Assembly (NCBI RefSeq): GCF_007970665.1
Contig: NZ_CP042430.1
Location: forward strand, 2,480,001-2,544,000
Reading direction: 5' to 3'
DNA: 64,000 nt
DNA from: Baekduia soli
GTDB lineage: Bacteria; Actinomycetota; Thermoleophilia; Solirubrobacterales; Solirubrobacteraceae
Below the pieces are notes generated by a model. That model saw only the letters and a list, made by a program, of their open reading frames with translations, searched no databases and was not told the origin of the DNA. The position numbers and the translations under genes were made by a program. Below are positions 18,930 through 33,798 of this stretch, piece after piece; the first letter of the stretch is position 1, and every line of letters starts with the position of its first letter.

Positions 18930-19003
18930 CGGGGAGTGGCGCAGTCTGGTAGCGCACCCGGCTGGGGGCCGGGCGGTCGCAGGTTCAAATCCTGTCTCCC
19001 CGA
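18930..19003 (+). tRNA. tRNA-Pro (GGG)
   Basis: 74 nt. The acceptor CGGGGAG pairs with CTCCCCG, discriminator A. The anticodon stem CCCGG/CCGGG encloses CTGGGGG with anticodon GGG. The T arm contains GGTTCAAATCC. Its 3' part is duplicated at 29025-29074, marking it as the integration site of a genomic island. Confidence 0.96.
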
Positions 19004-19008
19004 CTCAC
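18959..19008 (+). repeat. Left 50-bp attachment repeat (3' part of tRNA-Pro)
   Basis: Runs from the anticodon arm of tRNA-Pro to just past its 3' end. The same 50 bases occur at 29025-29074 with one mismatch (g here, c there, before 'caggttcaaatcc'). Overlap with a tRNA 3' end is the classic tyrosine-recombinase att arrangement. Confidence 0.85.
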
Positions 19009-19140: not shown

Positions 19141-19428
19141 GTGACTTTCAAGGGCAAAGAGGAGCGTCGGGCGATGCTCAACGCGGTCGACAAGCTGCGC
19201 CAGTTGGGTCCGAAGCTCGTCGCGCCGCACGTCAAGTCCCTGAAGGGGGAGGCGGACCTGTTCGAGCTGCGGCCCCGGCAGGGGAGCTCCATGTGCCGCC
19301 CGATCTTCGTGCAGCAGGCGGATCGCTACCTCGTGGTCGCCGTCGCCGTCGACCATGCGAAGGACATGGACCGAGCCGTGGCCGATGCCCGAGCGCGACT
19401 TCAGGAGCGCGGCACGGTTGCCGACTGA
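19141..19428 (+). CDS. higB: HigB-like toxin (RelE superfamily, Gp49-like)
   Basis: 95 residues, GTG start. A lysine/arginine-rich beginning ('FKGKEERRAMLNAVDKLRQL') leads to 'GPKLVAPHVKSLKGEADLFE', 'LRPRQGSSMCRPIFVQQADR' and a final helix with 'RAVADARARL'. This is the phage Gp49-like / HigB pattern of ribosome-dependent mRNA interferases. Toxin first, antitoxin second and a short gap are the HigBA order. It probably stabilises the island. No downstream target can be read from sequence. Confidence 0.8.
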   Translation: MTFKGKEERRAMLNAVDKLRQLGPKLVAPHVKSLKGEADLFELRPRQGSSMCRPIFVQQADRYLVVAVAVDHAKDMDRAVADARARLQERGTVAD

Positions 19429-19445
19429 TAACCCATGAGTTATCA
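19426..19445. promoter_or_regulatory. Inverted repeat between higB and higA
   Basis: TGATAAC-CCATGA-GTTATCA, 7-bp perfect arms around a 6-base spacer, overlapping the toxin stop and lying 10 bases before the antitoxin ATG at 19456. It is a plausible HigA operator or an internal promoter-operator for the antitoxin gene. Confidence 0.45.
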
Positions 19446-19455
19446 TCGTCGCACG

Positions 19456-19881
19456 ATGGCCAAGCGCAGCAATCACGACGTCAGCTTCGGCGAGTTCGTC
19501 GCCGAGGAGCTCAACGAGGACGAGGGCTTTCGTCGCGACTGGCAGCGGCTCGCCCCGGCGCGTCAGTTCGCGGCGATGCTCATCGAGTATCGCGCCGACC
19601 ACGGGCTGAGCCAGCGCGGGCTGGGTGAGAAGCTCGGGGTCTCTCAGCCGAGGGTGGCCCGCATGGAGTCGGGCGAGCAGAACCCCGATGTGGACACGAT
19701 CATTGCGACCATCGAGAAGCTCAGCACTGAGTTCGTCCTCGACGTCGGACCGGCCGACACGGATGCCACGCTGGTCACCAAGGGTGCCCGGTCCTCGGGC
19801 GCCGTCATCAGCCACGGCAACGTCTCGGTCACGACGGCCTCGGCTCGGGCCCGGAAGGGCACCAAGAAGCCAGCCAGCTAG
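19456..19881 (+). CDS. higA: HigA-like antitoxin, XRE family
   Basis: 141 residues starting MAKRSNHDVSFGEFVAEEL. The central XRE HTH is 'YRADHGLSQRGLGEKLGVSQ' then 'PRVARMESGEQNPDVDTI'. The N-terminal region pairs with the toxin and the C-terminal Lys/Ala-rich tail 'ARARKGTKKPAS' is basic. It should neutralise HigB and repress its own operon. An in-frame ATG at 19435 lies within the inverted repeat and is less likely. The gene follows higB by 27 bp. Confidence 0.82.
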   Translation: MAKRSNHDVSFGEFVAEELNEDEGFRRDWQRLAPARQFAAMLIEYRADHGLSQRGLGEKLGVSQPRVARMESGEQNPDVDTIIATIEKLSTEFVLDVGPADTDATLVTKGARSSGAVISHGNVSVTTASARARKGTKKPAS

Positions 19882-19911: not shown

Positions 19912-20160
19912 TCAGCTGGCCACGTCGCCTGGCGTTGTTCCGGCGGCGGATTCATCGGCCGGCTGCTCACCGGCGAATGCGGCGTCGACGAGGGCGACCT
20001 CGTGCGCGCCGGGCGCGTAGTGCGTGTAGATCTGGGTCGTCTTCGCGTCGGCGTGACCCAGGAGCTCCTGGACCGCTCGCAACGGCGTGCCCGGCGCGAC
20101 GAGGCGGGTACCGAAGGTGTGCCCGTGGCCAGCCGGCTGGCCATGGGCACCGACGACCAT
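19912..20160 (-). pseudogene. Tyrosine recombinase (integrase), C-terminal remnant
   Basis: Only the last part of the catalytic domain remains: '[20 protein letters not shown]' (the HxxR box, with His and Arg) then '[15 protein letters not shown]' with the active-site His and nucleophilic Tyr. The upstream Arg box and the N-terminal arm-binding and core-binding domains are missing; sequence before 20130 is unrelated. It lies 0.9 kb from the tRNA-Pro att copy, the normal place for the element's own integrase. The island is therefore probably immobile. Confidence 0.75.
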
Positions 20161-20378
20161 CGACCGCAGCAGAGACGGGGGCTCTCGAGCCAGAGAGATG
20201 ATCACGCCGGTCCGAGGCGAACCGCCGGGGTCAAGGACGTGCACCCGTTCATCGGGCAACCCGGAGGTGCCGGCACGCAGTCTTCACGTCACGGGACGGT
20301 GAGCAATCACCGGCCCTTCGCTCTGAGGATCTGACGCTTAGCGCTAGCGCCAGGACCTCATCTGGCAGGCTCGCGGAC

Positions 20379-23412: not shown

Positions 23413-24063
23413 TCAGCCTGGGAAGGTGGCTCGTGTGCCTGCCAGCAGCGCCTCGAGCCCGGAGGCGAACGCCTGGTCGGGCGTCAGCGCTGACAGCTCC
23501 TTGACGCTGCGCCGCAGCACGGGGAACTCCTCAGCGGCCAGGGCACGGAGCGGGCGCCGGGCGGCCGCGGTGCTGGCGTCGACCGTGAAGCCGGTGACCT
23601 CGGCCAGTGCGTAGCCGCGCGCGTAGCTGGCCACGGAGCGGTAGACGCCCAGGGCCGCCGCAGGCGTGGATCCCGCCGAGACGAGGCACTGCAGCAGACG
23701 CTCGACGGGGCGCAGCGCCGCGGGCGAGGCCAACGGCCGAAGTCCGATGAGCCGGAACGCCTGTGGGTGGTGCAGGGTCAGGGTGCGCAGCTGCCCGGCG
23801 AAGGCGCGACATGCGTCGGTCCAGTCCGATCCGGGCTCGGGGATCTCGATGCGCGCCATGAGCAGCTCCCCGAGCCCGTCGAGCACGGCCTCGCGGTTGG
23901 GCACGTGGTTGTAGAGGGACATGGCCTCCACGCCGAGCTCATCACCGAGGCGGCGCATCGTGAGCGCCTCGGCACCCTCTCGTTCGACGAGCGCGAGCGC
24001 TGCCCGCAGGATGCGCTCGCGGGTTAGGCCGGCGCGGCGCGTGCGGGTGTTCGCGGCAGGCAC
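23413..24063 (-). CDS. TetR/AcrR-family regulator (TetR_C-type)
   Basis: 216 residues. N-terminal HTH: 'TRERILRAALALVEREGAEA' and 'LTMRRLGDELGVEAMSLYNH', with the MSLYNHV recognition helix typical of the TetR(B)-like C-terminal group. The C-terminal ligand domain follows ('HHPQAFRLIGLRPLASP'). It represses a nearby operon, most likely the convergent PanE-like/mandelate-racemase-like pair or a distant gene. No clear palindrome is visible in the 140 bp upstream. Confidence 0.86.
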   Translation of the reverse strand: MPAANTRTRRAGLTRERILRAALALVEREGAEALTMRRLGDELGVEAMSLYNHVPNREAVLDGLGELLMARIEIPEPGSDWTDACRAFAGQLRTLTLHHPQAFRLIGLRPLASPAALRPVERLLQCLVSAGSTPAAALGVYRSVASYARGYALAEVTGFTVDASTAAARRPLRALAAEEFPVLRRSVKELSALTPDQAFASGLEALLAGTRATFPG

Positions 24064-24206
24064 GTCTACACCCTATGTGCGGCGAGCGCCGCCGCCGCAC
24101 GCAGGACCGCCCGGTCGTCCGCACACCTCAGGGCAGGGAGGCGATGAGGAGAAATGCTTCGGGCCGGGCGGGCCTCCGCGCGGCGGAACGTCACCTGCGG
24201 CGTGCG

Positions 24207-24662
24207 TTAGAGCACCTCGCCGCTGCTCCACGTGCCGCACTGCCACCGGGCCGTCTCCTCCTCGGCGGTGGCCGCCTCGCGCGAGGCCGACAGGCCCCAG
24301 GCGGCCATGGTCGCCACCACGGCGCCAGCCACGCTGACGTTCCACGACGCCGTCGGGCCCGGGTCCAGCCACCACGCCGAGCTCAGCAGCCACAGCCCCG
24401 CGACGATGTTCGCCACCGCGAGCCGCGCGCTGCGCGACGGACGGGCCATCCGCACCGCCGCGACGGCCACGATGACCGCCCCGGCGGCGACCGGGTTCCA
24501 GCTCGCGTCGCCGGGGCCGTCATGCAGGACCCATGAGGAGGCGACAAGCCACCCGCCCGCGAGCAGGTTCAAGGCGCTGGCGGTCTCGGCGCCGCGGCGG
24601 CTGACGCGGCCGGCCTGTGCCGGCGTCGTCGGGACGGGCGTCGGGGGGCCGGGATCGGTCAT
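24207..24662 (-). CDS. SPW repeat membrane protein
   Basis: 151 residues from ATG 24662 (MTDPGPPTPV). Two SPW-type units: 'NLLAGGWLVASSWVL...ASWNPVAAGAVIVAVAA' and 'NIVAGLWLLSSAWWL...ASWNVSVAGAVVATMAA', each forming two membrane helices. A charged acidic tail follows. SPW proteins are small inner-membrane proteins of unknown function found in many actinobacteria and proteobacteria. The gene stands 0.1 kb upstream of the decayed ferritin-like gene's end, on the same strand. Confidence 0.75.
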   Translation of the reverse strand: MTDPGPPTPVPTTPAQAGRVSRRGAETASALNLLAGGWLVASSWVLHDGPGDASWNPVAAGAVIVAVAAVRMARPSRSARLAVANIVAGLWLLSSAWWLDPGPTASWNVSVAGAVVATMAAWGLSASREAATAEEETARWQCGTWSSGEVL

Positions 24663-24749
24663 GCAGGCTCGTCTCCCCGGCGGCCCCGCTATGGGCCGGC
24701 GGGCTGTCATGGGTGCGGTGCTGGTGTCGCGCGCCTGACACCGGCGATG

Positions 24750-25273
24750 TCAGCGGAGGTGCGGGCCCGCGATGGGCCGGAAGGCCAGTCCGTCCTGGCG
24801 GATGATCCCGCAGGCCTCCACGGGCACGCCCGGGTCTCCGCCGCTGCAGCCATAGCTTGACGGGACGTGGTACGCGGCGCTGCCGTCACAGGTTCATCCC
24901 GACCCGGCCTCGCTCGCACCGGCGAGGTCATACGTGCCGGTCGAGATGCGGTAGCGGACGGCCCCGGAGTCCGAGGTCCGGCACCCGCCCGGATCGCCAC
25001 CGCGTCGAGCTGGGAGCCGAGCTTCTCGGGGCCGACCGTGTTGACGATCGTGGCCAGCACCTCGGCCGTGGCCGCCACGGCCAGGATGTTCTCGGCCTTG
25101 TTGGCGTCGTTGGTGGACACCTTCGCCTCGGCACTGGCGCTCATGAGACCGAAGAGACCCATGCCCGCCAGCGACGCCGCCGTGCCCTTGATCAGCCCGC
25201 GCCGGCTGGAGGCCGGCAGATGCTGGTTCTGGCGGTCGATCTCGTCGTACAGGTGGTTGGTGGCATCGCTCAT
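24750..25273 (-). pseudogene. Truncated ferritin-like protein joined to an unrelated secreted-protein end
   Basis: From ATG 25273 the first 85 residues are a ferritin-like Tat-exported protein: 'MSDATNHLYDEIDRQNQHLP', 'SSRRGLIKGTAASLAGMGLF' (twin-arginine-like signal), then 'ENILAVAATAEVLATIVNTV' as in ferritin-like_2 proteins. It then stops matching. Downstream, in two other frames, lie protein-like pieces ending at 24750: 'GDPGGCRTSDSGAVRYRIST' and 'CDGSAAYHVPSSYGCSGGDP' to 'IAGPHLR'. These look like the end of a Cys-containing secreted protein. I read a deletion chimera with later indels. It overlaps the flippase-like gene stop by 4 bp (ATGA). Confidence 0.5.
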
Positions 25274-26361
25274 GCGGGTGGATCCCTTCTGGCGGCCGCT
25301 CGGAGCCAGCCGGGCGCCCGCGCTGTGCTGCGGATGACTGCCGCGTGGCCGGCCTGGACCGCGACGGGGGCCGCGACGGGGGTCGCGACGTCGACAGCGC
25401 GGGCGGCCCGCAGCGCCCCCCGTGGTGTGTGTGCGCCGAGCTCGCGTGCCACGATCGTCACCGAGATCGCCAGCATGACGACGAAGAGGGTGGCGCTGAC
25501 CCCGACGGTGAAGACCGTGATGGCACCGGGGTCGACCGGCCGGCCGGTCACCTCGACGAGCCCGTAGGCCAGCAGCACGATCCGCAGCCCGGTGCTGACC
25601 GGCGCGATGGGCACGATGCGCCCTCCGCTCTGGGCGGCCATGACCAGGACGGCCGTTCCCACCGTCGCCGGAAGGCCGAAGGCGTTCAGGAAGCAGGCCA
25701 GCGATCCCAGCCGGATCACGCGGCCGAGCGCCTGCCAGGTCGCAACACCGGTCATGAACAGGCGCGGCCGGCGCAGGATGGTCAGGCCCTGGCGCAGGCG
25801 ATCCAGCAGCACGCGGGACCGGCGCCCGGCCCACCGCAGGACGACGACCGTCAGCAGGACCGCCGCCGCAACCGACGCCGCCGCGAGGACCGGGTGCTCG
25901 ACGACCGTCGAGGCGTCGGGTCCCGGCAGGTCGCCGGGCGCGGCGGGCACGGGAAGGAAGCCCCGAGCGAGCATCCACACGACCAGGACCGCGCCGAGCG
26001 CGGATTCGAACAGCGTTTCGGGCAGCGATGTCGCGGCGAGCGTGCTGTAGCGCGATCCGGGCAGCCGTCGATGCAGGATCGTGTACTTGACGACGTCGCC
26101 TGCGCGGGCCGGAAGCAGGCCGTTGATCCCGGACCCTGCAAGGTAGGCGACGGTGACGTCGCGGTGACGCAGGCCGGCGGCCTGCGCCGGGTACGCGACG
26201 CGGAGGATGTTCCACCAGCCGCGGATGCGGACGACCTGTGCGGCGAGGTGGGCCAGCACCCCGGCGACCAGCCACAGCGGGTCGACGTCGACGGCGTTGC
26301 TGAGCAGCAGGTCGGCGGCGTGGTGGGCGCGATCGATCGCCCCGTCGATGACCTCCCTCAT
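25270..26361 (-). CDS. Flippase-like membrane protein (LPG_synthase_TM / UPF0104)
   Basis: 363 residues with about eight helices. The conserved 'GINGLLPARAGDVVKY' segment near the N-terminus and 'AAQSGGRIVPIAPVSTGLRI' near residue 245 are hallmarks of the MprF-flippase-like UPF0104 family. Relatives translocate or bind lipids in the inner membrane. No synthetase domain is attached, so lipid modification by this protein is not implied. It is followed with ATGA coupling by the ferritin-like relic and preceded by the ClC gene on the same strand. Confidence 0.8.
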   Translation of the reverse strand: MREVIDGAIDRAHHAADLLLSNAVDVDPLWLVAGVLAHLAAQVVRIRGWWNILRVAYPAQAAGLRHRDVTVAYLAGSGINGLLPARAGDVVKYTILHRRLPGSRYSTLAATSLPETLFESALGAVLVVWMLARGFLPVPAAPGDLPGPDASTVVEHPVLAAASVAAAVLLTVVVLRWAGRRSRVLLDRLRQGLTILRRPRLFMTGVATWQALGRVIRLGSLACFLNAFGLPATVGTAVLVMAAQSGGRIVPIAPVSTGLRIVLLAYGLVEVTGRPVDPGAITVFTVGVSATLFVVMLAISVTIVARELGAHTPRGALRAARAVDVATPVAAPVAVQAGHAAVIRSTARAPGWLRAAARRDPPA

Positions 26362-26453
26362 GGACGGCAGGTACCGCCGGGGAGCGCGACCCGGACTCGG
26401 GTGTCATCGGGATGACGCGAACGGTGAACGGTCCGCGTCGGCGCATCACGAGG

Positions 26454-28364
26454 CTAGGGCGCGACCGCTGGCGTGGCGTCGCGCTCGCGGGCCGGGGGCC
26501 GGTCGGCCGGCGTCGGCGTCGGCGTCGGCGCCGACGCCAGGCGCCGGCGCTCTCGGTGGTAGGCGTACAGGATGCTGCGGTGCGTGATCCAGCCGGCGAT
26601 CTCCCGACCGCCCGCGGTCAGCACGGGCAGCCCGGTCGCGTCGGTGGCGCCCAGGGCGTGGACGGCGTCCTCGAGCGTGTCGTCGGCGTGCAGCTCGTGG
26701 ACGCCGCGGGCGAGGGAGCCGGCATCGGCGCCGGGTGGGTCGTCGGCCATCATGTGCTGCTCGAGGTCCCCGGCGGTGATGACGCCGACCAGCCTTCCGA
26801 GCGCATCCAGGACGGGAACGGACTGGTCGGGGCGATCGGTGAGGCGCGCCGGCGCCGCCGAGAGCGGCGCGTCGGCGGCCAGGGTCTCGGGCATGGGCTC
26901 GATCGCGTCCTCGAGCGTGACGGTGCGCATGACGCTCACGACGCGGGGACGGTCGATCTGGATGCCGCGACGACGCAGCTTGAGCGTGTAGATCGTGTCG
27001 GACGACAGGCGCCCGCTGATGCCGGCGGCCAGGACGATCGCGAGCATGAGCGGCAGGATGATGGAGTACTCGCCGGTGAGCTCGAAGATGATGAGCACCG
27101 CGGTGATCGGTGCCCGGGCCGACCCGGCGAACACCGCTCCCATGCCGACCAGGGCGTAGGCGCCGGCGGGTGCGGTCACCCCCGGCAGGAGCTGATGGGC
27201 GACCTGGCCGAAGGCCGAGCCGAGCATGGCGCCCATGAACAGGGAGGGGGCGAAGACGCCGCCGGAGCCGCCGATCGAGATGGTCAGGCTCGTGGCCGCG
27301 ATCTTGGCGACCAGCAGCAGCAGGACGAACGCGATGGCGTAGTGGCCGGAGACGGCCAGCGAGAGGACGGGGTAGCCCACGCCGTACATCTCAGGGACGG
27401 CGAGCAGCAGTAGGCCGAGCAGGATGCCGCCGACGGCGGGGCGGGCCCAGGCGGGACCTCTCCAGAGGCGGTCGGCGAGGTCCTCGGACCCGTAGAGCAC
27501 GCGGATGAACACGATGCCGACGGCACCGCCGAGCAGGCCGAGCGCGGCGTAGAGCACCAGCTCGACCGGTGAGGTCAGGGTGAAGCCCGGCAGGTGCAGG
27601 AAGCTCGCCGAGCCGAACGCCCCGCGGGCGATCGCCGCGGCGGTGACCGAGCTGAGCACGACCACGCCGAAGGAGTCGGTCTCGAAGTCGCGCAGGATGA
27701 CCTCCAGCGCGAAGAAGACCCCGGCGATCGGGGCGTTGAACGTGGCCGAGATCCCGCCGGCTGCGCCACAGGCCACCAGCAGCTTGAGCCGGCGCTCGGG
27801 CACGCGGGCCGCCTGGCCGATCAGCGAGCCGAGCGCGGACCCGATCTGGACGATGGGGCCCTCGCGGCCGACCGAGCCGCCCGAGCCGATGGTCAACGCC
27901 GAGGCCAGCGCCTTGATCACGGGCACCTGTGCGCGCATGCGTCCGCCGTGCTCGGCGACCGCGAGCATGACCTCGGGGACCCCATGGCCACGTGCCTCGG
28001 GGGCGAAGCGCGCGACCAGCGGCCCATACAGGAGCCCACCCATGACCGGTGCCAGGACCACGAACCAGATGCCCAGGCCCGGAACGTGGGGATTGGCCAC
28101 GCGACCGGCCGCGCTGTAGTCGCGGTAGCCCGAGAAGAGCTCGGTCAGCCCTTGGATGAGCTCGCGGAACGCGATCGCGCCCAGTCCGGCGCCGACCCCG
28201 ACCAGCAGGGCGAGCGCGACGAGGCCGCGGGTCCCACTCAGCCCGAGGCGTGCGCGTGCGGTGATCGTCGCCCCCCGTGGACCCCGGGCGCCGCGCGCAG
28301 CGCGCTCGCGCACGATGGCTCCATCCGCCGGAGGGCGTGAGGACGAACGGGACACGCCGAGCAC
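26454..28364 (-). CDS. ClC-family chloride transporter with C-terminal CBS pair
   Basis: 636 residues, about 11-12 membrane helices. Selectivity-filter segments are 'GSGGSVGREGP' at residues 160-170, which keeps the gating glutamate (Glu168) of H+/Cl- exchangers, and 'GSGGVFAPSLFMGA' in the second half. The cytoplasmic end carries two CBS domains ('VMRTVTLEDAIEPMPETLAA', 'VLDALGRLVGVITAGDLEQH', 'HELHADDTLEDAVHALGATD'), probable nucleotide or ionic-strength sensors. GTG 28364 is the start; it lies 5 bases from a 15-bp palindrome. Expected in the cytoplasmic membrane, moving Cl- or another halide. Confidence 0.9.
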   Translation of the reverse strand: MLGVSRSSSRPPADGAIVRERAARGARGPRGATITARARLGLSGTRGLVALALLVGVGAGLGAIAFRELIQGLTELFSGYRDYSAAGRVANPHVPGLGIWFVVLAPVMGGLLYGPLVARFAPEARGHGVPEVMLAVAEHGGRMRAQVPVIKALASALTIGSGGSVGREGPIVQIGSALGSLIGQAARVPERRLKLLVACGAAGGISATFNAPIAGVFFALEVILRDFETDSFGVVVLSSVTAAAIARGAFGSASFLHLPGFTLTSPVELVLYAALGLLGGAVGIVFIRVLYGSEDLADRLWRGPAWARPAVGGILLGLLLLAVPEMYGVGYPVLSLAVSGHYAIAFVLLLLVAKIAATSLTISIGGSGGVFAPSLFMGAMLGSAFGQVAHQLLPGVTAPAGAYALVGMGAVFAGSARAPITAVLIIFELTGEYSIILPLMLAIVLAAGISGRLSSDTIYTLKLRRRGIQIDRPRVVSVMRTVTLEDAIEPMPETLAADAPLSAAPARLTDRPDQSVPVLDALGRLVGVITAGDLEQHMMADDPPGADAGSLARGVHELHADDTLEDAVHALGATDATGLPVLTAGGREIAGWITHRSILYAYHRERRRLASAPTPTPTPADRPPARERDATPAVAP

Positions 28365-28368
28365 GTTA

Positions 28369-28383
28369 GCTTACACCGTAAGC
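28369..28383. promoter_or_regulatory. Palindromic operator 1, GCTTAC-N3-GTAAGC
   Basis: Perfect 6-bp arms around ACC, 4 bases upstream of the ClC gene's GTG. It shares the CTTAC-N3-GTAAG core with the 23-bp palindrome 42 bp away. Two such boxes between divergent genes point to one regulator, in style a TetR-type dimer. Confidence 0.6.
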
Positions 28384-28424
28384 ATCAGGGTTCTCGTGCT
28401 CGCCCGTCCGGCACGTTGCCGAAC

Positions 28425-28447
28425 GAGAACTTACGATGTAAGTTCTC
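28425..28447. promoter_or_regulatory. Palindromic operator 2, 10-bp arms around GAT
   Basis: GAGAACTTAC-GAT-GTAAGTTCTC, a perfect 23-bp palindrome ending 4 bases before the ATG of the 55-residue membrane protein. A possible promoter overlaps it: TTGCCG (28416-28421) and TAAGTT (28439-28444), 17 bases apart, which would put the transcript start at about the ATG (leaderless). Binding would block this promoter directly. Confidence 0.65.
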
Positions 28448-28451
28448 TGGT

Positions 28452-28619
28452 ATGGGACTTGCCGCTGCTGGGGTCTTCGCCTGTGGGCTCTGGATCATCC
28501 TCTGGGGGATCGACTTCGGCCGGACCGGGGATGCGTTCCTCGTCACCGTGCCGCCGATCATGTTCATCGCCGTCATGGTGCACGCGATCAGGGCCAAACG
28601 GGCACGGCAGCGGCCATGA
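28452..28619 (+). CDS. Small two-helix membrane protein (55 residues)
   Basis: Starts 'MGLAAAGVFACGLWIILWGI', then 'FLVTVPPIMFIAVMVHAI' and a basic 'RAKRARQRP' tail. The two helices with short loop 'DFGRTGDA' suggest a membrane hairpin with the C-terminus inside. No Shine-Dalgarno is seen; translation may be leaderless. The upstream 23-bp palindrome ties it to the ClC gene's regulation, so it may be an accessory or stress-induced membrane peptide. No family recognised. Confidence 0.55.
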   Translation: MGLAAAGVFACGLWIILWGIDFGRTGDAFLVTVPPIMFIAVMVHAIRAKRARQRP

Positions 28620-29024
28620 CGCGCGGGGCCGTGAGATCCAGCTGGGGTCCCTGACGGCCGCCGGCCGGCGCGTTGCACCGCGCGCCGGGACGTAGACCCC
28701 GCTCATCTGGGATCACCAGTCGGGAACGGTGGCCGCCGAGCCCTCCTCCGCGGCGGTGTGCGGTGGTTGAGTGGCCGGGCCCTCTCGCGGGATCGACCCA
28801 GGAGCGCCGCATTCGACTGCCACGCCGACGGCTCGCTGACCCGACGGCTGGTTCGTCGGTCATGGGTCGCTTCTCGCGCGCCGCCGTAGCGGGTCGCCGG
28901 CGCCCGAGTTGCCCTATGCCGCGAGGTACGAGACGGGGTACAAACTGAGGCAACCCAGAGCTACCGAGCCGCCCAGAGCTCCCGCTGTGGAGCAACACGC
29001 GGACGGACGGATTTCGCGTCCTTG
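28620..29024. other. Non-coding stretch before the right att copy
   Basis: About 400 bp between the small membrane protein and the right att copy. Open frames here have skewed Arg/Gly/Pro composition, no recognisable motif and no ribosome-binding site. I see no gene, RNA gene or repeat in it. Confidence 0.4.
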
Positions 29025-29074
29025 CGGCTGGGGGCCGGGCGGTCCCAGGTTCAAATCCTGTCTCCCCGACTCAC
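29025..29074 (+). repeat. Right 50-bp attachment repeat (tRNA-Pro 3' copy)
   Basis: 49 of 50 bases match 18959-19008, covering the anticodon-loop GGG, variable region, T arm and acceptor 3' side of tRNA-Pro, plus the next 5 bases 'ctcac'. The 5' half of a tRNA is not present, so this is not a gene. Confidence 0.85.
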
Positions 29075-29273
29075 AGAGGCCCTGATCTCATCCGGGTCTT
29101 CTGCTTTCTAGAACTCTCGAGTCGACCTCACGGGATCCGATTCGGGATCCATTTGCCCGCGCGGACCTCGGCGTTCGCCATCGCCCTACCGCGTATGGAC
29201 GATCTCCAGTTCGACTTCGATGACGCGGCGGGCGCTGAGCGCGGCCCCGGGGCGTCTGGGGTAGTGCTCCCGC

Positions 29274-29555
29274 CGCTACGGTCCCGACGCCATCCGCCGC
29301 CTGGAAGTGCTCGACGCCGCCGAGCGAGCCGGGTCTTAGCCCCGACGAGGCCCGCCTGCCAGTCGAGCACGACGACGCCGGTACCCCTGCCTTTACCGCG
29401 CTGGGCGGGCTGGTCGCTCGCAAGCTGCCGACATCGACGCGCTGATCGCCCCAGGCGCAGGCCATGCGCACCTGGATGCTGACCGCAACGACCGCTCCTG
29501 CGCGGCGCTTGACTCATGCGCGATGTTCGAGCCGAGCAGCACGGCGCGTTGTTGA
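29274..29555 (+). pseudogene. MerR-family regulator remnant
   Basis: Three frames in succession give 'RYGPDAIRRLEVLDAAERAG', then 'GLSPDEARLPVEHDDAGT' and 'ALGGLVARKLP', then 'DIDALIAPGAGHAHLDADRN' and 'CAALDSCAMFEPS'. Together these are the effector half of a MerR regulator, and the last segment resembles the C-terminal metal-site Cys region. The N-terminal HTH is missing and at least two indels are present. It may once have controlled the neighbouring sulfur/metalloid genes. Confidence 0.45.
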
Positions 29556-29656: not shown

Positions 29657-30025
29657 TCAGTAGTTGAACGTCGTGGCGCCGTCGCCGACGAACTCCATCA
29701 GTGGCGTGGCGCCCTTGAGTTCGGCCCCGTCGACGAGGTCGGCTTCGTCGAGCTCGCGCTCGCGGAAGCAGATGGGGCAGACGAAGAACCGGCCGCCCTT
29801 CTCGATGAACTGGCCATGGAGACGGTCGATCGGTGGTTCCTGGCCGGCGCGGATGCGGTCGGCGTAGCCACGCAGGCCGAGTCTCACGCCGTCGACGCTG
29901 AGCCACATGACGACGTCCTTGCCTTGATCGAGGGCGGCGACGGCGGTGAGGTAGGAGACCGCCACGCGGTCGGGGTCCTCCTCGCCATGTGTGCAGCCGA
30001 CGACGACGCGTCCGTTGCTTGCCAT
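29657..30025 (-). CDS. DsrE-family protein
   Basis: 122 residues from ATG 30025 (MASNGRVVVGCTHGEEDPDR). Rossmann-like DsrE fold: 'VVVGCTHGEE', 'VAVSYLTAVAALDQGKDVVM' and the C-terminal 'GRFFVCPICFRERELDEADL' with a CxxC pair, ending in 'GDGATTFNY'. DsrE/TusD-like proteins carry persulfide sulfur or bind thiol-bound ligands. It follows the methyltransferase in the same operon, 22 bp downstream, so it probably acts in the same sulfur or metalloid pathway. Confidence 0.8.
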   Translation of the reverse strand: MASNGRVVVGCTHGEEDPDRVAVSYLTAVAALDQGKDVVMWLSVDGVRLGLRGYADRIRAGQEPPIDRLHGQFIEKGGRFFVCPICFRERELDEADLVDGAELKGATPLMEFVGDGATTFNY

Positions 30026-30047
30026 AGGTACGTCCTCCTGTGGTTGT

Positions 30048-30839
30048 TCAGTGACCTGGCTTGACGGCGCGGATCGTGGAGCCCATCGCCCCGAACTTGG
30101 CCGCCTTGCGACGGGTGTCCTCGAAGACCGAGCGTGCGTAGGTGTCGACGAGGTCGCCCTGGGTGATGTCGGTGTAGGCCCGCTGGACCAGCAGGCGCGC
30201 GTGCTCGCCCTCGAGCAACGCGCCGGCGATTCACCCCGTCCAGAGGTCGATGCGCTTGCGGGCGTCCTCGGAGACTTCGTGGTGGACGATCACGTCGGCC
30301 AGCTGCAGCCGGCCGCCGGGCCGAAGGACGCGGTCGATCTCGTCGAGCACGGCGTCCTTGTCGGGGACCAGGTCGATGACGCCGTTGGAGATCACGACGT
30401 CGACCGATGCGTCGGGTAGCGGCAGTGCCTCGATCAGCGACTCGTGCAGCTCGACGTTGTCGACGTCCATCTCGTTGGCGCTCTGCCGGGCACGCGCGAG
30501 CATCGTCGTGGTCATGTCGACGCCGATGACCTGCCCAGTTGACCCGGTCATCTGGGCCGCGATCAGCAGGTCGGTGCCTGCGCCGCAGCCGAGGTCCAGG
30601 ACGACCTCTCCGGGTTCGATCCGTCCCAGCGCCCAGTGGTTGGCGACCCCGGCGAAGCTCTCCACGGTGGCGTCGGGAACCCGCGACAGCTCCGGTTCGG
30701 GGTACCCGAGCGCTCGCGCCCAGCTTCGCCCGGTGGGGAAGATGTAGTCCTTGGACTGATCAGTGGAGACATCGGTGTAGGTCTTGCGGATCTCGTCGCG
30801 CAGGACGTCGACGTCGACGGGAATGTCGTGTGAGCTCAT
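30048..30839 (-). CDS. ArsM-like SAM methyltransferase with in-frame TGA, candidate selenoprotein
   Basis: From ATG 30839 (good 'ggagagga' upstream) the protein has a class I fold: 'VVLDLGCGAGTDLLIAAQMT' (motif I), 'VIGVDMTTTMLARARQSA', 'VVISNGVIDLVPDKDAVLDE' and 'IDRVLRPGGRLQLADVIVHH'. After 'RKRIDLWTG' comes TGA (30231-30233). The same frame then continues 60 codons, 'IAGALLEGEHARLLVQRAYT' to 'IRAVKPGH', to a second stop at 30048. In relatives I recall the sequence LWTGCIAGALL, so the TGA replaces a Cys that corresponds to an arsenic-binding Cys of ArsM. With readthrough it is 263 residues, the normal length; without it, 202. A hairpin follows the TGA. The usual second ArsM Cys ('SNC') is Gly here. 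Confidence 0.72.
30194..30224 (-). ncRNA. SECIS-like hairpin downstream of the TGA
   Basis: Within the coding sequence, 6 bases after the TGA: outer stem GGCGCG/CGCGCC, a short asymmetric internal loop, inner stem TGCTCG/CGAGCA and apical tetraloop AGGG. The apical loop is 20-23 bases beyond the TGA. Bacterial SECIS elements lie directly after UGA, with the apical loop roughly 16-37 bases away and a G near its start, so this fits. High GC makes hairpins common, so it is suggestive only. Confidence 0.45.
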
Positions 30840-30967
30840 GCGGCGGTCCTCTCCCTGCGGGAGGTGCCAGTCCTCCTGGCCATGGCCTCGCCGGGCAGGC
30901 AGAAGTCGGTCGTCGTCACCGGCCTCCAGGCGGCCACCAGCAAGACGCTGATCCCGAGTGCACGCAT
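30836..30967 (-). CDS. 43-residue peptide with strong RBS, coupled to the methyltransferase
   Basis: ATG 30967 is preceded by 'gaaggaggacgag', a near-ideal Shine-Dalgarno. The peptide begins 'MRALGISVLLVAAWRPVTTT', a signal or membrane-anchor-like stretch, then 'DFCLPGEAMARRTGTSRRER' and stops by ATGA overlap with the methyltransferase start. It sits between the ArsR-rhodanese gene and the methyltransferase. One Cys (residue 23) is present. It may be a leader peptide that couples translation or a small membrane peptide; no family known. Confidence 0.5.
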   Translation of the reverse strand: MRALGISVLLVAAWRPVTTTDFCLPGEAMARRTGTSRRERTAA

Positions 30968-30985
30968 CTCGTCCTCCTTCGTGGG

Positions 30986-31651
30986 TCAGGCGGCTCGCTG
31001 GTTCATTCGCGGCTGGGTCGCGAGCCGCCACTCGGGCCAGCCTTCCTGGAGGCGCCTGGCGTCACGGCCGGCGGCGCGCAGCTGGCGTACCGCCTCGTGG
31101 GCGTAGGCGCAGAACGGGCCGCGGCAGTAGGCGACGACCTCGCGATCGGCGGGAAGCTCGGCCAGCCTGTCGCGCAGCTCGTCGATCGGGATCGAGCGGG
31201 CACCGTCGATGTGGCCGGCCGCGAACTCCTCGGACGGCCGGACGTCGATGACCATCACCTCGCCGCGACGCAGGCGGGCGATCAGCTCGTCGCGGCCGAT
31301 CGCCTCGACGTCCTCGCCGAGGTACTCGCCGGCCGCCCGCTCGACCTCGGCCAGCTGTGCGACAGATGTCTCTCGTAGGGAGAGCCACAACCTCAGGACC
31401 TCGTCGCCGGCCAGGGCGTAGCGCACGCTTGTGCCCTCGCGCGCTCGGGTGACGACACCGGCGGCGTGCAGCGCCTGCAGGTGCTGCGACGTGTTGGCCG
31501 TCGACTGATCGCTGGCCCTCGCCAGCTCATCGACGGACCGCGGCGCCTGGGCGAGGAGATCCAGGAGCTCGAGGCGACGGGGACTGGCGAACGCCTTGCC
31601 CATCAGTGCGATGGCCTCGAACAGCGCGGTCTTCTCGGCTCGGGAGCTCAT
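30986..31651 (-). CDS. ArsR-family HTH fused to a rhodanese domain
   Basis: 221 residues. N-terminal ArsR winged HTH: 'FASPRRLELLDLLAQAPRSV', 'STANTSQHLQALHAAGVVTR'. C-terminal rhodanese: 'VMVIDVRPSEEFAAGHIDGA', 'SIPIDELRDRL' and the active-site loop 'VAYCRGPFCAYAHEAV' with the nucleophilic Cys. The fusion suggests a repressor that senses sulfane sulfur, persulfide or metalloid through the rhodanese Cys. It is the first gene of the leftward operon, and a palindrome lies just upstream of its ATG, shared with the divergent hydrolase gene. Confidence 0.88.
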   Translation of the reverse strand: MSSRAEKTALFEAIALMGKAFASPRRLELLDLLAQAPRSVDELARASDQSTANTSQHLQALHAAGVVTRAREGTSVRYALAGDEVLRLWLSLRETSVAQLAEVERAAGEYLGEDVEAIGRDELIARLRRGEVMVIDVRPSEEFAAGHIDGARSIPIDELRDRLAELPADREVVAYCRGPFCAYAHEAVRQLRAAGRDARRLQEGWPEWRLATQPRMNQRAA

Positions 31652-31661
31652 CCGTTGTTAT

Positions 31662-31677
31662 TCAAGTGATCACTTGA
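31662..31677. promoter_or_regulatory. Operator TCAAGTGATCACTTGA between ArsR-rhodanese and MBL genes
   Basis: Perfect 16-bp palindrome, extended to GTTA(T)-core-TAAC (31657-31681). ArsR-family boxes commonly have TCAA/TTGA arms. It lies 10 bp from the ArsR-rhodanese ATG and 34 bp from the GTG of the MBL-fold gene, so one regulator can control both directions. Confidence 0.7.
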
Positions 31678-31711
31678 TAACTTGTCAAGCCCTTCGACCA
31701 GGAGGTCCGCC

Positions 31712-32476
31712 GTGTTCTTCCGCCAGCTGCTCAACGACGAGACCGCCTGCGCCTCCTACGTGCTCGGCTGCAAGACGCACAGCTCGTTCGCCGTGGTCGA
31801 GCCGCACGCCGATCTCGTCGACGACTACATTGCGCTGGCCGAGGCGCAGGGCTCGACGATCACGGCCGTCTTCGATACGCACGTCCAGGCCGACCACGTG
31901 TCGGGGATGGCTGAGCTGGTCGCACGCACCGGCGCGATCGCATACCTGCCCGTGGGCGCCGGCGTGGACTTCGATCATCGTCCGATGGGTGATCTGGAGG
32001 TCGTCGTGCTCGGCAACGTCGAGGTGCAGGCGATGGCGACGCCAGGCCACGCGGTCGCCCATCACGCCTACCTGGTCACTGATCACACGCGCGCCGACGA
32101 ACCGTGGTTCGTGCTGACCGGCGACGCGCTGCTGGTCGGCGACGCCGGGCGCCCCGACCTGCACGCCCACGGCGAGCACACCGTCGAGGCGATGGCGCGG
32201 GAGCTGTACCGCTCGATCACACAGCGGCTGCTGGCACTGTCCGACGACGTGCTGCTGTACCCCTCGCACTACTCCGGCTCGCTCTGCGGCCGCGGCCTGT
32301 CGGCCAACCCCGCCTCGACGATCGGCTTCGAACGCCGCCATAACGTCGCACTGCAGCATGGCGACGAGGACGCCTTCGTGAAGGCCTTGGTGCAGGACAT
32401 CCCGCCGAGGCCCGAACAGCAGGCCGCAATCGTCGCCGCCAACCGCGCCGGGCACCCGCTCGCCGACGTGACATGA
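31712..32476 (+). CDS. Metallo-beta-lactamase-fold hydrolase (persulfide-dioxygenase-like)
   Basis: 254 residues from GTG 31712 with 'aggaggtcc' upstream. The MBL motif is 'DTHVQADHVSG': His57, Asp61 and His62 are kept but Gln59 stands where the second His is normally found. Other metal-site segments are 'TPGHAVAHHAY' (His), 'TGDALLVGDAGRPDL' (Asp) and 'YPSHYSG' (His). The nearest groups are persulfide dioxygenases (ETHE1-like) and glyoxalase II-like hydrolases, which fits the rhodanese and DsrE neighbours. Overlaps the MFS gene by 4 bp (ATGA). Confidence 0.82.
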   Translation: MFFRQLLNDETACASYVLGCKTHSSFAVVEPHADLVDDYIALAEAQGSTITAVFDTHVQADHVSGMAELVARTGAIAYLPVGAGVDFDHRPMGDLEVVVLGNVEVQAMATPGHAVAHHAYLVTDHTRADEPWFVLTGDALLVGDAGRPDLHAHGEHTVEAMARELYRSITQRLLALSDDVLLYPSHYSGSLCGRGLSANPASTIGFERRHNVALQHGDEDAFVKALVQDIPPRPEQQAAIVAANRAGHPLADVT

Positions 32477-33798
32477 GCCGGCCGCAGGTCCGCCTCGGGC
32501 TGCGCGAGAACGCCGCGCAGTTCTCGCTGCTGGTCGCGGTCAACGCGTTCGTGGGTGCGATGGTCGGCCTCGAACGCTCGACGCTGCCGCTCCTCGGCCG
32601 CGAGGAATTCCACGTGGCCTCCAGTGCCGCGGTGCTGTCGTTCATCGTCGCCTTCGGTCTCGCCAAGGCGTTCACGAACCTCGGCGCGGGGGCCCTCGCG
32701 CAGCGCGCAGGGCGGCGGCGCCTGCTGATCGCCGGCTGGGCGGTTGCGCTGCCCGTGCCGCTGCTGATTGCCGTGGCGCCGAGTTGGGGCTGGATCGTGG
32801 CGGCCAACCTCCTGCTCGGTGTCAACCAGGGCCTGGCCTGGTCCATGACCGTGGTGATGAAGATCGACCTGGTCGGGCCCCGCCGACGTGGGCTCGCGCT
32901 CGGGCTCAACGAGGCCGCCGGCTACGGCGGCGTCGCGTTGGCCGCCGGGCTGAGCGGCGTGATGGCCGCTGAGTTCGCCGCGCGGGATGTGCTGGTCGTC
33001 GCGGGCGCCGTGATCGCCGGGACCGCGTTCCTGCTCTCGGTGCTGTTCGTGCGCGACACCGCCGAGCACGTCGCGCTCGAGCAGGCCGCCCATCATCCGA
33101 CGGCCGGCGGCAACCCACCGCGGCTGCGCGAGGCGTTCGCCCGCGCGACCTACCGCGTGCCCGCGCTGCGGTCCTGCTCGCAGGCCGGCCTGGTCAACAA
33201 CCTCAACGACGGCCTGGCCTGGGGACTGGTGCCGCTGTTCCTGGCCGCCCACGGCGCCGGCGCTGCGCAGATCGGCCTCGTCGCCGCGGTCTATCCCGGC
33301 GTCTGGAGCATCGCCCAGATCGTCACCGGGCACTGGTCCGACACCGTCGGACGCAAGCCCCTGATCGTCACCGGCATGCTCGTCCAGGCCGTCGCGCTCA
33401 CGCTGCTGTCGCTCAGCGGCGGCTCGGTCGCCGTCGCGACCGGCACCGCGGCGCTGCTCGGGATCGGCACCGCGCTCGTGTACCCGACGCTGATCGCCGC
33501 GATGTCCGACGCGGTCTCACCGATCGCTCGCGCGCCGGTCGTCGGGGTCTACCGCTTCTGGCGCGACATGGGCTACGCGTTGGGAGCGCTCCTCGCCGGG
33601 GGCGTCGCCGACGCGCTGGGCTACGGCGGCGCGATCGCGATCGTGGCCGGCCTGACCGCCGCTTCCGGGTTGTGGGTGCTGCGCGACATGCCCAAGCGAC
33701 CGCCCGGGTCTCGGCCGGGCGCGGCCTCGACCATGCACCCCGCCGAACATCGATCCGGTCTGGAGGCGACGTCCCCGAGCAAGGTGGAGGTCACGTGA
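32473..33798 (+). CDS. MFS transporter
   Basis: 441 residues, twelve predicted helices. 'LVAVNAFVGAMVGLERSTLP' opens helix 1 and 'GAGALAQRAGRRRLLIAGW' and 'VTGHWSDTVGRKPLIVTGML' are the paired MFS loop motifs. A charged cytoplasmic tail of about 35 residues follows. In the sulfur/metalloid module it probably exports a small anion, thiol conjugate or methylated product. The substrate is not visible from sequence. Confidence 0.86.
   Translation: MSRPQVRLGLRENAAQFSLLVAVNAFVGAMVGLERSTLPLLGREEFHVASSAAVLSFIVAFGLAKAFTNLGAGALAQRAGRRRLLIAGWAVALPVPLLIAVAPSWGWIVAANLLLGVNQGLAWSMTVVMKIDLVGPRRRGLALGLNEAAGYGGVALAAGLSGVMAAEFAARDVLVVAGAVIAGTAFLLSVLFVRDTAEHVALEQAAHHPTAGGNPPRLREAFARATYRVPALRSCSQAGLVNNLNDGLAWGLVPLFLAAHGAGAAQIGLVAAVYPGVWSIAQIVTGHWSDTVGRKPLIVTGMLVQAVALTLLSLSGGSVAVATGTAALLGIGTALVYPTLIAAMSDAVSPIARAPVVGVYRFWRDMGYALGALLAGGVADALGYGGAIAIVAGLTAASGLWVLRDMPKRPPGSRPGAASTMHPAEHRSGLEATSPSKVEVT

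What the first reader, a model, noticed from the sequence alone, without database searches (positions are those of the whole stretch)
28369..28447. Paired CTTAC-N3-GTAAG palindromes between ClC transporter and a 55-residue membrane protein
Two perfect palindromes with the same core lie 42 bp apart between divergent genes. One is 23 bp and overlaps a -10-like TAAGTT and ends 4 bp from an ATG without a Shine-Dalgarno, suggesting a leaderless transcript controlled by a dimeric regulator. No obvious regulator gene is adjacent, although TetR (23413-24063) is in the same island.
Basis: partly seen in the sequence, partly recalled or inferred. Interest (0 to 1): 0.6.

Follow-up and report, generated by a model that had tools for sequence, protein, structure and literature searches.

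The report
TetR repressor operators on genomic island
The two matching DNA palindromes are very probably landing sites for a TetR-type repressor encoded about 4 kb away on the same small genomic island, where they would switch off a chloride-channel-family gene and a tiny membrane-protein gene; it is a well-supported new example of a common kind of bacterial gene switch.

Summary
The palindromes are real: 15 bp at 28369-28383, 23 bp at 28425-28447. The 5.2-Mb genome has three exact CTTAC-N3-GTAAG sites, two of them here. They are almost certainly TetR-family operators. Of 80 named relatives of the window's TetR (23413-24063), 47 carry the exact motif within 400 bp upstream (67 sites; 0.08 expected), and it ranks first among 5-mer palindromes. 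In Patulibacter minatonensis the order is ferritin-like <- two sites -> ClC -> TetR ortholog. In another genus (G147) one site precedes a homologue of the 55-residue protein followed by the TetR ortholog, another precedes ClC. ClC genomes with the TetR ortholog: 4 of 4 have a site (one with a mismatch); without it, 0 of 11. The genome's other full-length TetR_C_1 protein has a different helix and its own GTGTAC sites. Both flanking genes have leaderless-type promoters (TAnnnT-7 nt-start) that the palindromes overlap or abut; this pattern occurs at 3 of 3456 ATG/GTG in the window, two of them here. The module lies in a ~10-kb island at tRNA-Pro. Binding, effector and transcript starts are untested.

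The parts
28369..28383 (.). Operator 1, GCTTACACCGTAAGC (6-bp arms, 3-nt centre), just upstream of the proposed -10 of ClC
   Evidence: motif score 26.0 with a matrix from 67 TetR-adjacent sites, against 3.0 for the best non-site in the window
28425..28447 (.). Operator 2, GAGAACTTACGATGTAAGTTCTC (10-bp arms, 3-nt centre), overlapping the proposed -10 of the 55-residue gene
   Evidence: highest matrix score in the window, 28.1; same position before the homologue in G147
28416..28421 (+). -35-like TTGCCG, 17 nt before the -10 (weak match, read by eye)
   Evidence: sequence
28439..28444 (+). -10-like TAAGTT, exactly 7 nt before ATG 28452
   Evidence: TAnnnT-7-(ATG/GTG) occurs at 3 of 3456 ATG/GTG in the window
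28452..28619 (+). 55-residue small membrane protein (two probable TM segments, by eye), relative of a small family beginning MGLxxATTFxLxLWxVLW
   Evidence: homologue in G147 (E 3e-11) with site start to ATG 22 nt, as here
28363..28368 (-). -10-like TAACGT, exactly 7 nt before GTG 28355 (proposed leaderless start of ClC)
   Evidence: same arrangement at ClC in G147 and G024
26454..28355 (-). ClC-family anion transporter/channel with CBS region; longest ORF starts at GTG 28364, GTG 28355 proposed
   Evidence: Pfam PF00654 E 3e-102, PF00571
23413..24063 (-). TetR-family regulator (TetR_N + TetR_C_1), helix GVEAMSLYNHV; proposed repressor of both operators
24207..24710 (-). SPW-repeat membrane protein next to TetR; membership of the regulon unknown
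   Evidence: PF03779
24999..25313 (-). 98% copy of the 5' part of the ferritin-like gene whose intact copy lies at about C1:2594763-2595590 (L004:4764-5591), near the third site
25270..26361 (-). LPG_synthase_TM-domain membrane protein, same strand between ClC and TetR; membership unknown
   Evidence: PF03706
18959..19008 (+). attL-like repeat: 3' half of tRNA-Pro(ggg) (tRNA 18930-19004)
19912..20259 (-). C-terminal remnant of a tyrosine integrase inside the island
   Evidence: PF00589 E 6e-10, profile positions 134-169 of 172
29025..29074 (+). attR-like repeat: 50 bp, 98% identical to the tRNA-Pro 3' half (29 nt exact)

Best explanation
The palindromes are a pair of TetR-type operators. A homodimer of the island's own TetR_C_1 repressor (23413-24063) binds each 13-bp core CTTACR-N-YGTAAG (6+1+6). 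Site 2 overlaps the -10 of a leaderless promoter of the 55-residue membrane protein; site 1 abuts the -10 of a leaderless promoter of ClC. Binding would keep RNA polymerase off both divergent promoters, and an unknown small molecule in the TetR C-terminal pocket would release it. The same regulator probably also controls the ferritin-like gene (or its divergent neighbour) at the genome's third site. Shown by sequence comparison: the sites, motif-TetR linkage, conserved target linkage, promoter geometry. Inferred: binding, repression, the effector, transcript starts. The module sits on a ~10-kb island inserted at tRNA-Pro.
For: Exact motif within 400 bp upstream of the TetR match in 47 of 80 named loci (67 sites; 0.08 expected from 2 in 897,608 bp elsewhere); CTTAC with a 3-nt gap ranks first among 5-mer palindromes with gaps 0-8 found in at least 5 loci. 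G024 = Patulibacter minatonensis: ferritin-like <- site, site -> ClC -> TetR, 57% identical to the window's. G147: site - 55-residue homologue - TetR (65%), and site - ClC. ClC genomes: 4 of 4 with the TetR ortholog have a site (3 exact, 1 with a mismatch), 0 of 11 without it (Fisher 0.0007, or 0.009 for exact sites). Rival TetR_C_1 protein: helix VVPMALYKH and its own GTGTACNNNGTACAC pair. TAnnnT-7-start in 5 of 5 of the exact-site 55-residue-gene and ClC promoters examined; 3 of 3456 ATG/GTG in the window overall. Typical TetR-family operator: 15-bp inverted repeat, two 6-bp arms 1 bp apart (PMC4486848, passage seen).
Against: No binding data. The window's TetR lies 4.3 kb from site 1 with no motif before its own start, unlike the 47 named loci where site and TetR adjoin. 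None of the 6 congeners has the TetR ortholog at E 1e-30 or the ClC at 1e-80, so conservation rests on a few other genera. In 33 of 80 named loci the exact motif is absent: 6 have a 4-nt centre, 21 a TAC-N3-GTA core with changed flanks, 6 nothing. The two G147 sites match CTTAC-N3-GTAAG but not the R-N-Y centre. With one mismatch allowed, the motif is no commoner than its backwards control in most of 12 genomes (G119: 6 against 11), so the G119 site is weak. The leaderless ClC start uses the second of two in-frame GTGs, chosen after the fact; the G119 ClC promoter lacks the 7-nt spacing. No good -35 is visible for ClC. The third site is ~560 bp upstream of the ferritin-like start and ~145 bp from a divergent gene, so its target is unclear. 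The partial TetR copy at C1:2575339 keeps the HTH part and is not excluded as a binder. G127 has a motif with no TetR within the 9 kb read.
Confidence: 0.85

Rival explanations
1. The palindromes are TetR-type operators, but another regulator of the host binds them in this genome; the island's TetR controls something else.
For: TetR is 4.3 kb away, not adjacent, and has no motif of its own. A partial copy of it with the HTH part lies 72 kb away. TetR-family proteins without the TetR_C_1 domain were not enumerated.
Against: Only 3 TetR_C_1 matches exist in the genome at E 0.001: this one, the partial copy, and one with a different helix and different operators. Orthologs of this TetR travel with the same targets and sites in G024 and G147.
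Confidence: 0.09
2. The palindromes act in RNA or as terminators: stem-loops at the 5' ends of the two divergent transcripts.
For: Perfect dyads; the 23-bp one could form a 10-bp stem.
Against: The motif recurs beside TetR genes with fixed half-site sequence but variable flanks; no T-run follows; with the proposed starts the palindromes lie upstream of the transcripts. No fold or terminator scan was run.
Confidence: 0.02
3. They are recombination or mobile-element sites belonging to the island.
For: The region is a tRNA-Pro island and islands carry such sites.
Against: The attachment-like repeats are elsewhere (18959-19008, 29025-29074). The motif occurs next to TetR genes in named genomes of several phyla.
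Confidence: 0.02
4. Chance palindromes in AT-richer intergenic DNA.
For: The genome-wide count (3, control 2) alone is only modestly above the 0.63 expected.
Against: The pair within 60 bp is expected 4.6e-6 times per genome; 29 sites of CTTACRNYGTAAG against 11 for the backwards control over 146 family genomes, with 13 genomes holding two sites within 260 bp (my tally of the table).
Confidence: 0.01

Closest known systems
SimR-simX (Streptomyces antibioticus simocyclinone repressor; PDB 2y2z/3zql)
   Same: Best solved relative of the window's TetR (E 5e-19); two separate operators between divergent genes (PMC5812520, passages seen).
   Different: SimR sits next to its target, an MFS efflux pump, and senses simocyclinone. 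Here the targets are ClC and a small membrane protein, the regulator is 4.3 kb away, the effector is unknown. The SimR operator sequence was not checked (paper not held).
TetR-tetO (tetracycline repressor)
   Same: Same domain pair (TetR_N + TetR_C_1; TetR class D at E 2e-15) and the same 6+1+6 operator layout (PMC4486848, passage).
   Different: Different half-site (CTTACR here; tetO recalled as CTATCA, from no call) and recognition helix (VEAMSLYNH against IEQPTLYWH); no tetracycline pump seen here.
TetR relatives beside MMPL transporters in the same family (G005, G015, G100, G164, G165, G166)
   Same: Same CTTACRNYGTAAG motif as close pairs near the TetR and an MMPL gene.
   Different: 33-40% identical to the window's TetR; different transporter.
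ActR (ActII-ORF1; PDB 2opt)
   Same: Relative of the window's TetR (E 6e-19).
   Different: Controls an actinorhodin exporter (PMC4486848, table passage); operator not compared.

Membership tests
TetR family (TetR_C_1 branch), the regulator | N-terminal TetR-type HTH and TetR_C_1 ligand-binding domain above curated cut-offs | tested here: met
   PF00440 33.1 bits (cut-off 24), PF02909 64.6 bits (cut-off 21); PDB matches SimR, ActR, TetR
TetR family (TetR_C_1 branch), the regulator | Intact open reading frame | tested here: met
   216 aa, no internal stop
TetR-type operator | Inverted repeat of about 13-15 bp with two 6-bp arms about 1 bp apart | tested here: met
   CTTACR-N-YGTAAG; purine/pyrimidine preference flanking the centre across 67 sites; definition from PMC4486848. 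Both window sites have R-N-Y centres (ACC and GAT), though G-T in site 2 is not a complementary pair
TetR-type operator | Recurs beside TetR genes of the same branch in other genomes | tested here: met
   47 of 80 named loci, 67 sites, 0.08 expected
TetR-type operator | Overlaps or abuts a promoter of a target gene | tested here: inconclusive
   Sequence geometry fits; transcript starts not mapped
TetR-type operator | Bound by the repressor and released by a ligand | not testable with these tools
   needs gel shift, footprint, reporter
TetR autoregulation | Operator in the regulator's own promoter | tested here: not met
   No motif upstream of 24063; in G024 and G147 the TetR follows ClC or the 55-residue homologue on the same strand
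Leaderless promoter | TAnnnT about 7 nt before the start codon | tested here: inconclusive
   Geometry present in 5 of 5 exact-site 55-residue-gene and ClC promoters, rare by chance; no transcript data; G119 ClC does not fit
H+/Cl- exchanging ClC | Gating glutamate (GREGP) and internal proton glutamate (E203 of E. coli ClcA; residue roles recalled) | tested here: not met
   GREGP present; the E203 position aligns with valine, so ClC family yes, exchanger unproven
tRNA-integrated genomic island | Direct repeat of the tRNA 3' end, integrase, broken synteny at the tRNA end | tested here: met
   50-bp 98% repeat, integrase remnant, synteny up to tRNA-Pro in 5 of 6 congeners and no blastn match to island or right flank in the stretch up to ~1.5 kb past it. 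GC of the stretch is not distinct

The most novel reading that the evidence does not exclude
A previously undescribed mobile stress module: one TetR_C_1 repressor with the CTTAC-N3-GTAAG code represses, from leaderless promoters, a ClC protein lacking the internal proton glutamate (possibly a chloride channel or uncoupled transporter), a small two-helix membrane protein and a ferritin-like protein with a Tat-like signal, all induced together by one unknown ligand.
Probability: 0.4. Interest if true: 0.5.

Novelty: new member of a known kind. Interest (0 to 1): 0.4.

Why it matters
It assigns a regulator, operators and targets to an uncharacterised actinobacterial island from sequence alone, and gives a testable DNA-recognition rule: helix EAMSLYNH goes with CTTAC half-sites, helix VPMALYKH with GTGTAC half-sites in the same genome (the second rests on one protein). 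If it holds, operators and targets could be predicted for many TetR_C_1 regulators across phyla. A TetR controlling a ClC protein together with a ferritin-like protein, rather than a drug pump, is unusual in my judgement and its effector would be informative.

Tried and rejected
Chance, hairpin/terminator and recombination-site readings were considered and rejected (see rivals). The other full-length TetR_C_1 protein of the genome (C1:1370563) was checked as binder and set aside because it has its own distinct operator pair. Pfam and PHROGs gave nothing for the 55-residue protein. In the repeat search of 24000-29400 the families listed (20 of 31 direct, 25 of 67 inverted) showed nothing resembling the palindromes elsewhere. 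tRNA genes were sought in 8 relative or own-genome stretches around the module and none was found, so an island setting is shown for the window only. Papers: searches aimed at SimR, at this motif or at a TetR-chloride-channel-ferritin link showed in their listings no paper describing CTTAC-N3-GTAAG as a TetR operator or such a regulon; only the held open library was searched, and one search listed 8 of 13 and one search listed 15 of 60 papers. One search (TetR operator prediction) listed nothing used. Of two papers (PMC5812520, PMC4486848) I saw passages only. No structure was predicted, since the PDB sequence matches already settle the family.

Full report
OBSERVATION. Allowing one mismatch the window holds only these two, against 0.05 expected in shuffles. 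The whole genome (G000, 5,212,251 bases, one contig) holds three exact CTTAC-N3-GTAAG sites: these two and C1:2596143-2596155; the backwards control has 2. One-mismatch sites add two more, making 5 against 8 for the control. From base composition 0.63 sites and 4.6e-6 close pairs are expected per genome, so the pair is significant and the third site alone is not.

THE MOTIF BELONGS TO A TetR BRANCH. With CTTACRNYGTAAG, 7 of 61 genomes and 15 of 146 genomes of the family have sites, this genome included. By my tally of the table there are 29 sites against 11 for the backwards control, and 13 genomes hold two sites within 260 bp. In 12 of the 14 genomes other than G000 a TetR relative lies in the stretch I read; the exceptions are G159, where the contig ends and the TetR is on another contig, and G127, where no TetR lies within 9 kb. 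A scan of named genomes with an alignment of six TetR orthologs kept the best 80 of at least 595 matches. These were selected by peptide patterns that include the recognition helix, so they are a biased set. In 47 of 80 the exact motif lies between 400 bp upstream and 30 bp downstream of the start of the TetR match: 67 sites, against 2 in 897,608 bp elsewhere in the same loci, or 0.08 expected. Among 5-mer palindromes with gaps 0-8 found in at least 5 loci, CTTAC with gap 3 ranks first. Of the other 33, six have CTTAC with a 4-nt centre, 21 have a TAC-N3-GTA core with changed flanks, and six have nothing; one of the six is the Patulibacter locus, whose sites lie before ClC. A matrix from the 67 sites scores the two window sites 28.1 and 26.0, the next window position 3.0, and the third genome site 23.0; maxima in 5 shuffles were 3.8 to 10.9.

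WHICH TetR. The window's TetR (23413-24063; TetR_N and TetR_C_1 above cut-off; nearest solved relatives SimR, ActR and tetracycline repressors) has orthologs at 52-65% identity in G147, G159, G155, G024 and G119; further relatives at 41-49% are in four more of the 146 genomes. In G147 one site precedes a homologue of the 55-residue protein, which is followed by the TetR, and another precedes ClC; these two sites fit CTTAC-N3-GTAAG but not the R-N-Y centre. In G119 ClC has a one-mismatch site and the TetR ortholog follows it on the opposite strand; one-mismatch sites are not commoner than the control in that genome (6 against 11). Fifteen of 146 genomes have this ClC at E 1e-80. Of these, the four that also have the TetR ortholog (E 1e-30) have a site; the eleven without it have none even with one mismatch in the stretches read. 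Fisher's test gives 0.0007, or 0.009 if only exact sites count; shared descent is not corrected for. G000 has just three TetR_C_1 matches: this one, a partial copy 72 kb away whose similarity ends at residue 140 of 216, and C1:1370563. The last has helix VVPMALYKH instead of VEAMSLYNH, and its upstream region carries its own pair, GTGTACGCCGTACAC and GTGTACACCGTACAC. It is therefore an unlikely binder of CTTAC sites.

PROMOTERS. Before the 55-residue gene: TTGCCG - 17 nt - TAAGTT - 7 nt - ATG 28452. Before ClC: TAACGT - 7 nt - GTG 28355, the second of two in-frame GTGs. In G147: TAAGGT-7-ATG (55-residue homologue) and TATCGT-7-GTG (ClC). In G024: TAAGGT-7-GTG (ClC). TAnnnT-7-(ATG or GTG) occurs at 3 of 3456 ATG/GTG in the window, 3 of 732 in the G147 stretch and 3 of 790 in the G024 stretch. 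The palindromes overlap or touch these -10 elements, which fits repression by occlusion. G119 does not show the 7-nt spacing, and the sites upstream of the ferritin-like gene lie about 200 to 560 bp from its start. Leaderless transcription is inferred, not shown.

TARGETS. The 55-residue protein has matches at E 0.01 or better in 25 of 146 genomes, this one included, but a strong one only in G147. Twelve loci were read: two, the window's and G147's, have the palindrome. Of the other ten, nine begin MGL, MGM or MAL and by eye have a TAnnnT element close to the start, without the palindrome; one looks spurious. A possible paralogue lies at C1:4118535 (E 0.007). ClC has the voltage-gated ClC domain and CBS region. 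Its gating glutamate motif is present, but the position of the internal proton glutamate of E. coli ClcA is valine (residue roles recalled), so 'antiporter' should not be assumed. The third genome site lies between a ferritin-like gene (PF13668) and a divergent gene that looks like an FAD oxidoreductase by eye. Sites upstream of the same ferritin-like gene in G024 and G159 make it the likelier target.

ISLAND. tRNA-Pro(ggg) ends at 19004. Its 3' half is repeated at 29025-29074 (50 bp, 98%; 29 nt exact). The genome has no other copy of the 24-nt core with up to one mismatch. Between the repeats lie a Gp49/HTH pair, an integrase remnant, metabolic genes, the TetR, ClC, both operators and the 55-residue gene. 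In 5 of 6 congeners the sequence up to tRNA-Pro is syntenic; past it, in the stretch of up to about 1.5 kb read, blastn found no match to the island or to the right flank. No empty site was therefore seen, and the GC content of the island is not distinct from its flanks. None of the 6 congeners has the TetR ortholog or the ClC at the stated thresholds, as expected for an acquired island.

KNOWN OR NEW. It works like, and is by sequence a member of, the TetR-operator kind; SimR also uses two operators between divergent genes (PMC5812520, passages seen). The CTTAC-N3-GTAAG assignment and this target set were not found in the held papers (listings only). The tetO sequence is recalled, not checked.

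Noticed in passing
window 18959-19008 and 29025-29074: Direct repeat of the tRNA-Pro 3' half bounding a ~10-kb genomic island with an integrase remnant; synteny ends at the same tRNA in 5 of 6 congeners, and G005 has a 98% repeat of the tRNA end about 11 kb away, so it may be an integration hotspot.
   Followed up: partly
window 24999-25313 and L004:5305-5618: A 98% copy of the start of the ferritin-like gene sits in the island and overlaps the end of the LPG-synthase-like ORF; the intact gene is ~90 kb away.
   Followed up: partly
window 23672-24471 and L054:7368-8166: Part of the TetR-SPW block is duplicated (84% identity) about 72 kb away with a partial TetR.
   Followed up: partly
L163:2163-2207: Another TetR_C_1 gene with helix VVPMALYKH has its own paired operators GTGTAC-N3-GTACAC: a helix-to-half-site contrast within one genome.
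   Followed up: partly
window 26454-28364: The ClC protein keeps the gating glutamate but has valine where E. coli ClcA has its internal proton glutamate; possibly a channel or uncoupled transporter.
   Followed up: no
L042 near 9741: In G159 the first CTTAC site precedes a ~41-residue one-helix ORF (by eye), again with TAnnnT-7 nt-ATG: a small membrane protein may recur under this operator.
   Followed up: no
window 19141-19881: Gp49-like protein and HTH protein pair next to the island's left end, resembling a HigB/HigA-type toxin-antitoxin pair.
   Followed up: partly
window 29657-33798: DsrE, methyltransferase, ArsR-rhodanese fusion, metallo-beta-lactamase and MFS genes just beyond the right repeat look like a sulfur or persulfide handling cluster.
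   Followed up: no
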